In this document: positions 35,680 through 40,071 of the stretch, in pieces
Layout: each line of letters begins with the position of its first letter
Numbering within the stretch: position 1 is the first letter of the stretch
DNA from: Gordonia bronchialis DSM 43247
GTDB lineage: Bacteria; Actinomycetota; Actinomycetes; Mycobacteriales; Mycobacteriaceae
DNA: 64,000 nt
Direction: 5' to 3'
Assembly: GCF_000024785.1 (NCBI RefSeq)
Contig: NC_013441.1
Location: 4,898,001-4,962,000, forward strand
Notes under the pieces: model-generated
Told to the model about the DNA's origin: nothing
The model's input: the letters and a program-made list of their open reading frames with translations, nothing else
The model's database searches: none
Made by a program: the position numbers and the translations under genes

Positions 35680-36315
35680 TCACCCGCGAGCGGCACCGTC
35701 TCCACCGGCCAGCACACCGTGCAGGACCAGTGCCGTCATCTGATCCACCCAGCCGTCGGCACGCACCGCGTCGGGATAGAGGAGCACACTGAGCATCGCC
35801 GAGCCGCCGAGTACCTCGACGAGACGGTCGGTGTCGACGTCGGCGCGCACGTCGCCGGTGTCCACCGCCCGTTGCAGCCGCCGCCCCACCGCGCCGAATG
35901 CCTCGGCGAATCTGCCGTGCACGCGGGTGGCGAGCGGCGGATCGGCACTCATCTCGGCGAGCAGCCCGGGCAGCGCGGCGTGGGCGACCGGGCTGGCGAA
36001 CAGATCGCGGGCGACGACGACCATCGCCCGGATGTCGGCGGCCACGTCGTCGGTGCTCTCCGGGAGTGCGGTGATCGTGGCGAACGCGGCTTCGTGCACG
36101 AGTTCAGCCTTACCCGACCACCGGCGGTACAACGCGGTCTTGGTGGTGCCGGCCCGCTCGGCGATCGCGGCCATCGTCACCCGGTTGTAGCCGATCTCGA
36201 CCAGCAGCTCCGACGCCGCCTCGAGGACCGCGGAGTCGATGCGCGGGTCCCGGGGCCGGCCGACTCCGGGGCCGGGATCCGCCGTGGACGCGAGGTCGTC
36301 GATTGTCTCTCCCAT
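35680..36315 (-). CDS. TetR-family regulator, 211 aa
   Basis: The HTH is AASELLVEIGYNRVTMAAIAERAGTTKTALYRRWSGKAELV. The C-terminal part resembles the TetR_C_11-type ligand domain (VARDLFASPVAHAALPGLLAEMS; VLGGSAMLSVLLYPDAV). The ATG at 36315 is separated by 69 bases from the ATG of the divergent phosphotransferase gene. The shared region contains paired repeats (36329-36366), so it most likely represses itself and the catabolic-looking genes to its right. Confidence 0.92.
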   Translation of the reverse strand: MGETIDDLASTADPGPGVGRPRDPRIDSAVLEAASELLVEIGYNRVTMAAIAERAGTTKTALYRRWSGKAELVHEAAFATITALPESTDDVAADIRAMVVVARDLFASPVAHAALPGLLAEMSADPPLATRVHGRFAEAFGAVGRRLQRAVDTGDVRADVDTDRLVEVLGGSAMLSVLLYPDAVRADGWVDQMTALVLHGVLAGGDGAARG

Positions 36316-36328
36316 AACGCAACCCAAC

Positions 36329-36366
36329 GTAGCGTATCTGTGGTATCGATACTCTGAGTAGCGTAT
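36329..36366. promoter_or_regulatory. Divergent TetR operator region
   Basis: GTAGCGTAT occurs twice in direct orientation (36329-36337 and 36358-36366), and a palindrome GTATCGATAC lies between them (36343-36352). The site is between tetR (start 36315) and the phosphotransferase gene (start 36385), where a repressor could block both promoters. Confidence 0.55.
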
Positions 36367-36384
36367 TTCGAGAGGGCGAGCAGC

Positions 36385-37530: not shown

Positions 37531-37531
37531 C

Positions 37532-38677
37532 ATGCCCGCGTCCGCACTCGGCCCGCTCGACGAGTTCCCCGTTCATCAACTGCCCCAACCGATTGCCTGG
37601 CCCGGCGACTCCGATCGCAACTTCTACGACCGCGCCTATCTCAACGCGCACGACCGCAGCGGCAACATCTTCCTCATCACCGGGATCGGGTACTACCCGA
37701 ATCTCGGCGTGAAGGACGCCTTCGTCCTCATCCGGCGACGCGGCGACGACGGTGGCGAGGGCACCCAGACCGCCGTGCACTGCAGTGACGCCATCGACTC
37801 CGATCGTCTGCATCAGCACGTCGGGAACTATCGGATCGAGGTCGACGACCCCCTCCGGTCGCTGCACGTCACGCTCGACGAAACCGAGGGCATCGCAGTC
37901 GATCTCACCTGGAACGGCCTGTTCGACCCGATCCTGGAGCAGCCTCACCTGATGCGCACGGGCGCCAAGGTGACGCTCAACGCCCAGCGTTTCGCGCAGG
38001 TCGGCACCTGGAGCGGATCGATCACCGTCGACGGCGAGCGGATCGACGTGGACCCCGGGCGCTGGATCGGGACCCGCGACCGCTCCTGGGGTATCCGCCC
38101 GGTCGGCGAACCCGAGCCGGCCGGGCGGCCGGCCGATCCGCCGTTCGAGGGCATGTGGTGGCTGTACATCCCGATGGCCTTCGACGACTTCCAGCTCGTG
38201 CTGATCGTGCAGGAGGACCCGTCGGGCTATCGCTCCCTCAACGACTGCGTGCGGGTGTGGGCCGACGGCCGGATCGAGCAGCTGGGCTGGCCGCGCATCG
38301 ACGTCCACTACGCGTCGGGCACGCGCATCCCCACCGGCGCCACCATCGACACCACCACGTCCGACGGTCGGCCGCTGCACCTCGACGTCGAATCTCGGCT
38401 CGCGGTGCCCATCCACGTCGGCGGCGGCTACGGTGGCGACCCGGACTGGACGCACGGCGTGTGGCGCGGCGAGAAGTTCACCGAGCGCCTCACCTACGAC
38501 ATGACCGATCCGGCGGTGACCGGCCGCAGCGCGTTCGGGGTGATCGATCACGTCGGACGGGCGGTGTGCCACGAGGCCGACGGCACCACCCGCGAGGGCT
38601 GGGGTCTCTTCGAACACGGCGCCCTCGGCCGCCATGATCCGTCCGGGTTTGCCGATTGGCTCTCGGTCGCACCGTGA
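37532..38677 (+). CDS. Conserved hypothetical protein, lipocalin/CrtC-AttH-like candidate, 381 aa
   Basis: The protein has no signal peptide. It is rich in beta-strand patterns with Trp/Tyr pairs: NIFLITGIGYYPNLGVKDAFV, RSLHVTLDETEGIAVDLTWNGLFDPI, GTWSGSITVDGERIDVDPGRWIGTRDRSWGIRP, and WWLYIPMAFDDFQLVLIVQEDP. RDRSWGIRP-type segments and the double beta-barrel look are reminiscent of the CrtC/AttH hydratase fold or of the DUF7064/7065 pair. I cannot assign a reaction. The gene is sandwiched between the kinase and the linalool-dehydratase-like gene, so it is probably part of the same pathway. Confidence 0.75.
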   Translation: MPASALGPLDEFPVHQLPQPIAWPGDSDRNFYDRAYLNAHDRSGNIFLITGIGYYPNLGVKDAFVLIRRRGDDGGEGTQTAVHCSDAIDSDRLHQHVGNYRIEVDDPLRSLHVTLDETEGIAVDLTWNGLFDPILEQPHLMRTGAKVTLNAQRFAQVGTWSGSITVDGERIDVDPGRWIGTRDRSWGIRPVGEPEPAGRPADPPFEGMWWLYIPMAFDDFQLVLIVQEDPSGYRSLNDCVRVWADGRIEQLGWPRIDVHYASGTRIPTGATIDTTTSDGRPLHLDVESRLAVPIHVGGGYGGDPDWTHGVWRGEKFTERLTYDMTDPAVTGRSAFGVIDHVGRAVCHEADGTTREGWGLFEHGALGRHDPSGFADWLSVAP

Positions 38678-38721
38678 TTCGGCTGGAGTGCCAGGAACAA
38701 CGCCGTAGATCCGCGTAAGCA

Positions 38722-40071
38722 GTGGCATCGCAGCGTTACCTGTTCGATCTGGCACTGCAGCCGGTTGATGACTTCACCGGTTTCACCAGGCTCGAGCAGA
38801 TCGGCGGCAGCGCACTGCGCTACCAGCTGAGTTACGCCTGCTACGCGCTGTCGCTGGCGCAGTACACGCGTACCCCCGCCTTCGGCGGCTACCTCGCCGA
38901 GGCGCAGGCCAACCTCATCCGCAAGATGTGCGACAAGCGGGTGTGGGGCTACTGGGCCACCGAGCGGCTCGCCGGCTACCTGCGCTGGAATCCCGATCCG
39001 ATGGTGTTCGCCAACGTCATGTACACCGGGTTCTTCGCCGCGATGCTCGCCATGTACGAGACGATGAACGACGACCGCGGCTTCGACGACGACGGCTCCC
39101 TGCCCCTGGTGTGGAGCCGTCGGCAGACCTACGACTACGGATTCACCCGCATCGCACAGGCCATCGAGACCAACATGCGGGCGAGTTCGCAGACGATGTA
39201 TCCGTGTGAGCCGCACCTGATCTACCCGATGTGCAACACCATCGCGCTGGCCGGGCTGACAGGTTACGACCGTCTGCATCAGACCGATCTCACCGACGAC
39301 CTACTCGACAAGACCCGCGATTCCCTCAACCACAACGGCTACCGACTCCGCAACGGGCGCTTCCTGTTCGGCCGCGGACCGCTGGGCCTCATGATGCCAC
39401 CCATGCTCGCCAACGACGCCGTGATGACATACTGGCTCAACGGCATCATGCCCGACATGGCCGCCGAAACCTGGGAATCCCTGCGCACCAACCGTCTCCG
39501 GATCCGCAACGGCGACGTGGCATTGCGCACCGGCCCGATCGACCATCTGGATGTCGGTTCCTACCACCTCGGCGTCGCCTGGGCCTGGGTCAACGTCTTG
39601 TGCGCGGCCAAGGAGATGGGCGACGACGAAGTGGCGCAGGGTGTTTCCGCACACATCCGCTCCGAAACCGGTTTCGAGCGGTCCCCGGAGGGAGCACACC
39701 GGCTGGCCGGTGTCTCGACCTGGGTCAACTGCGCCTACGCCTTCTCGCAGTTCGTCGGCCGCGACAGCCTGCAGGGCCTGATCACCGGCCGGGTGCCCGA
39801 GGCCTGGCGCACCGGCCCGACACTCGACGAGGCCGCCTACCCCGACGTGCTGGTGGCCAAGGCCCTCAGCGACAGCACCGGCCTCGAGTTGGTCCTCCGC
39901 CCCGGCGCCGGCGCGGTCCGTACGCCGTTGCGGCTCGGGCGTTTACGCCCCCGTGCCAGCTATCGGGTCGACGGTGGTGTCGAGTCAGAGATCATCGCCC
40001 ACGACGCCGGTTCGGCCATCGTCACCGTCGAATTGGCCGACCGGCACGAGGTGCGGGTCACGGCCGCTTGA
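38722..40071 (+). CDS. Linalool dehydratase/isomerase-like protein, 449 aa
   Basis: The middle of the protein resembles the (alpha,alpha)6-barrel linalool dehydratase/isomerase (LDI): LRYQLSYACYALSLAQYTRTPAF, DKRVWGYWATERL, FANVMYTGFFAAMLAMYETMNDD and YPCEPHLIYPMCNT. The two active-site Cys of LDI, nine residues apart in that enzyme, are matched by Cys162 and Cys171. The LDI histidine in MYSGH is Phe104 here (MYTGF), so the chemistry may differ. It has no obvious signal peptide; LDI is exported in its host. The start is GTG at 38722. The C-terminal 60 residues look like a small beta domain. TetR at 36315 probably controls the operon. Confidence 0.7.
   Translation: MASQRYLFDLALQPVDDFTGFTRLEQIGGSALRYQLSYACYALSLAQYTRTPAFGGYLAEAQANLIRKMCDKRVWGYWATERLAGYLRWNPDPMVFANVMYTGFFAAMLAMYETMNDDRGFDDDGSLPLVWSRRQTYDYGFTRIAQAIETNMRASSQTMYPCEPHLIYPMCNTIALAGLTGYDRLHQTDLTDDLLDKTRDSLNHNGYRLRNGRFLFGRGPLGLMMPPMLANDAVMTYWLNGIMPDMAAETWESLRTNRLRIRNGDVALRTGPIDHLDVGSYHLGVAWAWVNVLCAAKEMGDDEVAQGVSAHIRSETGFERSPEGAHRLAGVSTWVNCAYAFSQFVGRDSLQGLITGRVPEAWRTGPTLDEAAYPDVLVAKALSDSTGLELVLRPGAGAVRTPLRLGRLRPRASYRVDGGVESEIIAHDAGSAIVTVELADRHEVRVTAA

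What the first reader, a model, noticed from the sequence alone, without database searches (positions are those of the whole stretch)
35680..40071. TetR-controlled cluster with a linalool-dehydratase/isomerase-like protein
A TetR gene faces a compact unit of an APH-like kinase, a beta-rich protein of unknown function and a protein resembling linalool dehydratase/isomerase. The Cys pair CEPHLIYPMC keeps the spacing of the LDI active-site cysteines (Cys162 and Cys171 here), but the LDI histidine in MYSGH is Phe104. The kinase has Trp in place of the catalytic-loop His (WGDARIGN). LDI hydrates or dehydrates alkenols. This trio could be an undescribed pathway for terpenoid or other allylic alcohols, perhaps by phosphorylation and elimination, with an altered LDI-like site.
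Basis: partly seen in the sequence, partly recalled or inferred. Interest (0 to 1): 0.8.

Follow-up and report, generated by a model that had tools for sequence, protein, structure and literature searches.

The report
TetR-controlled kinase–lyase pair for tertiary alcohols
Next to its own TetR repressor, this Gordonia genome carries a kinase and a lyase that look like the enzyme pair known to strip water from tertiary alcohols on steroid side chains; M. tuberculosis appears to have the same gene set, uncharacterised and under a virulence-linked repressor, while the neighbouring linalool-dehydratase-like gene is probably a passenger moved next to them by a deletion.

The parts
35680..36315 (-). 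TetR-family repressor of the cassette
   Evidence: PF00440 58.6 bits and PF16859 63.2 bits; a TetR match lies beside the lyase in 45 of 57 other lyase loci with 1.5 kb flanks
36317..36335 (.). Predicted TetR operator ACGCAAC-CCAAC-GTAGCGT between the divergent genes
   Evidence: Palindrome CGCTAC-N5-GTAGCG at the same place in loci L122-L129 and L131-L133; CGCAAC form in L121 and CGCTAC-N5-GTA(t/a)CG form in mycobacterial loci L136-L140, compared by eye. Only exact match in this genome; with one mismatch allowed, 5 matches against 8 for the control pattern
36385..37530 (+). APH-fold kinase, Rv3168/25-HSK-like
37117..37140 (+). Catalytic loop WGDARIGN (residues 245-252)
   Evidence: 25-HSK and Rv3168 have the same W-G-D-A-R-x-G-N at this place
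37532..38677 (+). Phosphate-eliminating lyase, 25-PSL-like
   Evidence: 9FZN/9G4C 25-phosphosteroid lyase, E 1.7e-68; starts 1 bp after the kinase stop
38078..38080 (+). Codon of D183 in TRDRSWG, predicted catalytic Asp
   Evidence: The same Asp is Asn in chain 9G4C; invariant in 39 of 39 lyases aligned
38681..38722 (.). Deletion scar: 42 bp without a significant match in the fetched loci, in place of 6,817 bp present in Gordonia sp. ABSL49_1
   Evidence: blastn: window 38501-38680 = L121 7471-7650 (84%), window 38723-38900 = L121 14468-14645 (84%)
38722..40071 (+). 5'-shortened Ldi-family gene (barrel and C-terminal beta domain kept); not part of the conserved cassette
39205..39234 (+). Cys162...Cys171 pair of the LDI-like protein
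   Evidence: Cys in 55 of 55 homologues aligned

Best explanation
The functional unit is TetR, operator, kinase and lyase. When a hydrophobic ligand releases the TetR repressor, the kinase puts the gamma-phosphate of ATP on a tertiary alcohol, and the lyase eliminates phosphate to give an alkene: an ATP-paid dehydration that opens a blocked branched side chain for further oxidation. The likeliest substrate class is 25-hydroxy or similar tertiary side-chain alcohols of sterols. The Ldi-family gene next door is a passenger, brought there by a recent deletion that removed its start and the genes before it. Shown here: homology, conserved catalytic residues, recurrent adjacency and operator, the missing segment. 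Inferred: reaction, substrate, inducer.
Against: No activity was measured. The window lyase falls in a clade beside, not inside, the 25-PSL clade, and two lyases of the other clade match 25-PSL better (321 and 330 against 234 bits), so its substrate may differ. The KstR association is confounded by kinship, and 53 of 125 KstR genomes lack a strong lyase. The cassette is not universal: 20 of 37 genomes of the genus have a lyase at 70% identity or more. Aerobic sterol degraders hydroxylate C26 by P450 (PMC8449060), so the need for a 25-OH route is not obvious. Three of 38 lyases lack an adjacent kinase. The operator pattern has no excess of near matches over its control. In M. tuberculosis 442 genes respond to loss of Rv3167c (PMC5340868), so its role may be wider. 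In G030 an LDI lies about 10.6 kb from a lyase paralogue, a second loose proximity.
Confidence: 0.72

Rival explanations
1. Same chemistry, other substrate: the kinase-lyase pair dehydrates a non-sterol tertiary alcohol, such as a terpenoid, a hopanoid tertiary alcohol or a cell-envelope lipid.
For: Distinct lyase clade beside 25-PSL; a strong lyase in 41 of 41 sampled genomes of the Mycobacterium-like genus g23, which suggests a core lipid role; in six loci an MmpL-type transporter gene is divergent from the pair (cluster, one checked), which points to lipids in general.
Against: 25-HSK shows <0.1% activity on non-steroid tertiary alcohols (PMC8449060); strong lyases lie almost entirely inside KstR-bearing genomes.
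Confidence: 0.25
2. One reading: TetR, kinase, beta-rich protein and LDI-like enzyme form one pathway for terpenoid or allylic alcohols.
For: The genes are contiguous here; the LDI barrel and both cysteines are kept.
Against: A lyase near LDI in 1 of 61 other LDI loci; LDI in 0 of 57 lyase loci within 1.5 kb and in 1 of 40 wider ones, the sister genome; LDI in 11 of 397 genomes of the order against 74 with a strong lyase; 5'-shortened gene and deletion scar.
Confidence: 0.06
3. The kinase is an aminoglycoside phosphotransferase (the label given to Rv3168 and to many homologues).
For: APH fold and PF01636 at 68.2 bits; Rv3168 was published as a putative aminoglycoside resistance enzyme (PMC3691515, passages and reference); several homologues carry that name.
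Confidence: 0.03

Closest known systems
25-hydroxysteroid kinase (25-HSK), Sterolibacterium denitrificans (PDB 9FSG, 9FT5; PMC8449060)
   Different: Window kinase is closer to Rv3168 (59-62% identity); it is coupled to a lyase gene and a TetR, whereas the 2021 paper found no lyase candidate near 25-HSK; substrate untested
25-phosphosteroid lyase (25-PSL; PDB 9FZN, 9G2I, 9G4C)
   Same: Aligned over 328 residues (E 1.7e-68); Asp of RDRSWG and neighbouring motifs kept
   Different: Sister clade to the 25-PSL clade in the tree; substrate untested
Rv3167c-Rv3168-Rv3169 of M. tuberculosis (PMC5340868)
   Same: Divergent TetR and a two-gene operon behind it, as described there; kinase nearest to Rv3168; loci L136-L140 of the Mycobacterium-like genus carry TetR, kinase and lyase, and L137 also a NuoL-type gene and an amine oxidase nearby
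   Different: No sequence of Rv3169 was compared here; that it is the lyase is inferred from gene order. No LDI gene in the operon described. The regulator was studied for virulence, not for metabolism
Linalool dehydratase/isomerase (LDI), Castellaniella defragrans, and membrane-anchored linalool isomerase of Thauera (PMC4791888, passages)
   Different: 19% identity; LDI His position is F/W/Y/N in 55 of 55, never His; C-terminal beta domain added; N-terminal stretch lost in this strain

Membership tests
25-HSK-type tertiary alcohol kinase | APH fold closest to 25-HSK, well above other APH kinases | tested here: met
25-HSK-type tertiary alcohol kinase | W-G-D-x-R-x-G-N catalytic loop | tested here: met
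   W245, G246, D247, R249, G251 and N252 invariant in the 23 aligned kinases; same in 25-HSK
25-HSK-type tertiary alcohol kinase | Phosphorylates tertiary C25-OH steroids | not testable with these tools
   Needs an enzyme assay
25-phosphosteroid lyase | Full-length homology with the Asp altered in the 9G4C variant kept | tested here: met
   E 1.7e-68; D183 in 39 of 39
25-phosphosteroid lyase | Falls in the same clade as 25-PSL | tested here: not met
   25-PSL groups with eight other lyases of the order (98/91); the window is in the sister clade of 28 rows (97/99). The 25-PSL row has a long branch and unusual composition, and the root is a midpoint
25-phosphosteroid lyase | Eliminates phosphate from a 25-phosphosteroid | not testable with these tools
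   Needs an enzyme assay
Ldi domain family (PF18566) | Ldi domain above the curated cut-off and LDI barrel | tested here: met
Linalool dehydratase/isomerase (the enzyme) | Active-site His in MYxGH | tested here: not met
   F104; no His in 55 homologues aligned. That this His is catalytic is recalled, not tested
Linalool dehydratase/isomerase (the enzyme) | Cys pair | tested here: met
   C162 and C171, 55 of 55
Aminoglycoside phosphotransferase (resistance enzyme) | Reaches a curated model of a resistance family | tested here: not met
   Only APH_3p listed, 13.6 bits against a cut-off of 205

The most novel reading that the evidence does not exclude
The cassette is a dedicated module of aerobic, sterol-using Mycobacteriales that removes the tertiary hydroxyl of 25-hydroxysterols, including oxysterols and 25-hydroxyvitamin D3, by kinase plus lyase. 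In M. tuberculosis it would be Rv3168-Rv3169, the operon that the virulence repressor Rv3167c holds down, so that this repressor would sense a host-derived hydroxysterol.
Probability: 0.25. Interest if true: 0.85.

Novelty: new variant of a known kind. Interest (0 to 1): 0.6.

Why it matters
It gives a precise, testable function to a gene pair that is widespread in Gordonia and Mycobacterium and named in the databases seen here only as a phosphotransferase and a hypothetical protein. It shows kinase and lyase as one regulated operon, where the 2021 Sterolibacterium paper had the kinase alone. It also offers a metabolic reading of the Rv3167c operon of M. tuberculosis, whose regulator is known through its effect on virulence. 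The papers listed for Rv3168 and Rv3169 and those listed for 25-HSK, 25-PSL and related terms do not overlap; subscription papers and preprints are not in that library, and the 25-HSK structures were released only in January 2026, so a paper that makes the link may exist.

Tried and rejected
Three-gene pathway with LDI: rejected on synteny and the deletion. Degenerate or pseudo-kinase: rejected, since Trp-Gly-Asp is shared with 25-HSK. Aminoglycoside resistance: disfavoured. A wider TetR regulon in this genome by operator pattern: one exact site, no excess of one-mismatch sites over the control. Search of this genome for the LDI membrane partner was empty but has no positive control. Whether the shortened LDI is still translated was not settled: no obvious ribosome-binding site lies close to the GTG (by eye). 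Insertion in the relative instead of deletion here: disfavoured, because gene c10 lies between lyase and OPT transporter in nine of nine Gordonia loci that share this neighbourhood (L121-L129) and has only a 27% match elsewhere in this genome. An assembly error cannot be excluded; a 487-aa version at 99% identity is in the protein database (P0001). LDI native context was not pursued.

Full report
What is there. Gene calls and ORFs place a TetR gene at 35680-36315 (-), an APH-like kinase at 36385-37530 (+), a beta-rich protein at 37532-38677 (+) starting 1 bp after the kinase stop, and an Ldi-family protein at 38722-40071 (+). Pfam gives TetR_N 58.6 bits, APH 68.2 bits and Ldi 303.5 bits; the beta-rich protein has only sub-threshold matches, among them DUF7065 and DUF7064. 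The genome is taken as a Gordonia because genus-mate G006 is Gordonia sp. ABSL49_1 (same 415175-base contig). Genus g23 is taken as Mycobacterium because the contig length of G413 (490303) is that of Mycobacterium sp. MYCO198283.

The lyase. The beta-rich protein matches PDB entries named 25-phosphosteroid lyase at E 1.7e-68 over 328 residues. Chain 9G4C differs from 9FZN by Asp to Asn in the printed SRDRSWG motif; that Asp is D183 here and is kept in 39 of 39 aligned family members, as are R34, G53, Y55, P56, E136, R153, W186 and R189. A maximum-likelihood tree of 40 rows puts 25-PSL with eight other lyases of the order (support 98/91) and the window in the sister clade of 28 rows (97/99); the 25-PSL row has a long branch and unusual composition, and the root is a midpoint. 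Two lyases of the 25-PSL clade score 321 and 330 bits against 25-PSL, the window lyase 234. So the window lyase is a relative of 25-PSL in its own clade.

Recurrent cassette. Of 57 other lyase loci with 1.5 kb flanks (L064-L120, given for the best matches), 52 have the kinase, 45 a TetR match and none an LDI. In 40 wider loci, 38 lyase genes clustered, and 35 of them have a neighbouring same-strand kinase, 21 overlapping it by 1-4 bp; 33 are of the APH cluster and two of a second cluster, one of which was checked and is ecdysteroid-kinase-like, PF02958. Two further loci (L156, L160) had lyases too divergent to cluster, each beside a kinase-like gene. In six loci the pair is divergent from an MmpL-type gene (one checked, PF03176). 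The cassette is not universal: a lyase at 70% identity or more is found in 20 of 37 genomes of the genus, and a strong lyase in 41 of 41 sampled g23 genomes. A palindrome CGCTAC-N5-GTAGCG lies between TetR and kinase in L122-L129 and L131-L133, a CGCAAC variant in L121 and the window, and CGCTAC-N5-GTA(t/a)CG in L136-L140 (by eye); the window copy is at 36317-36335.

Link to M. tuberculosis. PMC5340868 (passages) reports that Rv3167c is a TetR repressor divergent from the operon Rv3168-Rv3169, that both genes are among the most upregulated in its deletion mutant, that purified Rv3167c binds a palindrome from the shared intergenic region, and that 442 genes change in the mutant. A motif upstream of Rv3167c was also listed, in the less significant class, by PMC4482099 (passage). 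Rv3168 was published as a putative aminoglycoside resistance enzyme (PMC3691515, passages). Locus L137 shows TetR, kinase and lyase with a NuoL-type gene on one side and an amine oxidase and an alpha/beta hydrolase on the other; that M. tuberculosis has nuo, aofH and hpx around this site is recalled. Rv3169 was not compared by sequence; that it is the lyase is inferred from order. Rv3169 is in 14 listed papers; passages in two, beyond PMC5340868, were read and give a drug-selected substitution and a chemoproteomic hit, no function.

Sterol link. In 397 genomes of the order, 93 have a lyase match and 74 a strong one (E<=1e-60). KstR, the cholesterol catabolism regulator (NF033703), is found at E<=1e-60 in 125, of which 72 are among the 74; over the curated cut-off the figures are 116 and 65. 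Within the window's family 60 of 60 genomes with a strong lyase have KstR, against 4 of 20 without. Related genomes inflate any such test, and 53 KstR genomes have no strong lyase, so this only makes a sterol substrate more plausible.

The deletion. Against L121 (ABSL49_1), window 38501-38680 aligns at 84% to 7471-7650 and window 38723-38900 at 84% to 14468-14645, so 42 bp here stand for 6,817 bp there. The missing stretch holds c9, c10, an FAD enzyme, the membrane-protein ORF and the first codons of LDI. c10 lies between lyase and OPT in nine of nine loci L121-L129, so loss here is the simpler history. A longer version at 99% identity is in the protein database (P0001). A sequencing or assembly error in the window cannot be excluded.

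No conserved trio. LDI is rare: 8 of 59 genomes of the genus and 11 of 397 of the order over the cut-off. Six of those 11 also have a strong lyase, on the same contig only in the window genome and ABSL49_1, though most are drafts. One of 61 other LDI loci has a lyase within 8 kb, namely ABSL49_1 at about 6.8 kb; 40 of the 61 hold full flanks. Of the 40 wider lyase loci only L121, again ABSL49_1, has an LDI. Against this, G030 has an LDI about 10.6 kb from a 60-61% lyase paralogue with other genes between.

How it likely works. TetR represses through the operator; a hydrophobic ligand releases it; the kinase phosphorylates a tertiary alcohol; the lyase uses D183 and its conserved surroundings to expel phosphate and leave an alkene. 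The repressor step is modelled on Rv3167c; the chemistry on 25-HSK and 25-PSL; the substrate and the ligand are proposals.

Verdict.

Noticed in passing
L044:8915-10237 and 16 other LDI loci: Just downstream of the LDI gene, 17 of 61 LDI loci share a conserved ORF by BLAST; one was checked and belongs to the MpaB/Lcp (rubber oxygenase-type) family PF09995. This may be nearer to the true pathway context of these LDI-like proteins.
   Followed up: partly
L134, L135, L143-L146: In six loci the kinase-lyase pair is divergent from an MmpL-type transporter gene (one checked). The lyases of L143-L146 group with 25-PSL, those of L134 and L135 with the window's clade.
   Followed up: partly
L154:9464-11740, L158: Divergent lyase homologues sit beside a kinase of a second type; the one in L154 is ecdysteroid-kinase-like.
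   Followed up: partly
P0151: A 506-aa database protein covers 99% of the lyase and also carries an APH domain call: a possible partial kinase-lyase fusion.
   Followed up: no
window 56100-61700: Stretch without confident genes: an IS3-like transposase ORF at 57069-58022 (-) lies between two parts of a beta-propeller-like gene, followed by a sulfotransferase-like ORF and broken frames; no Rfam match. Names are by eye.
   Followed up: partly
window 34283-35593: A type II NADH dehydrogenase-like gene follows TetR on the same strand; locus L137 also has NADH dehydrogenase (nuo-type) genes beside TetR. Probably coincidence.
   Followed up: no
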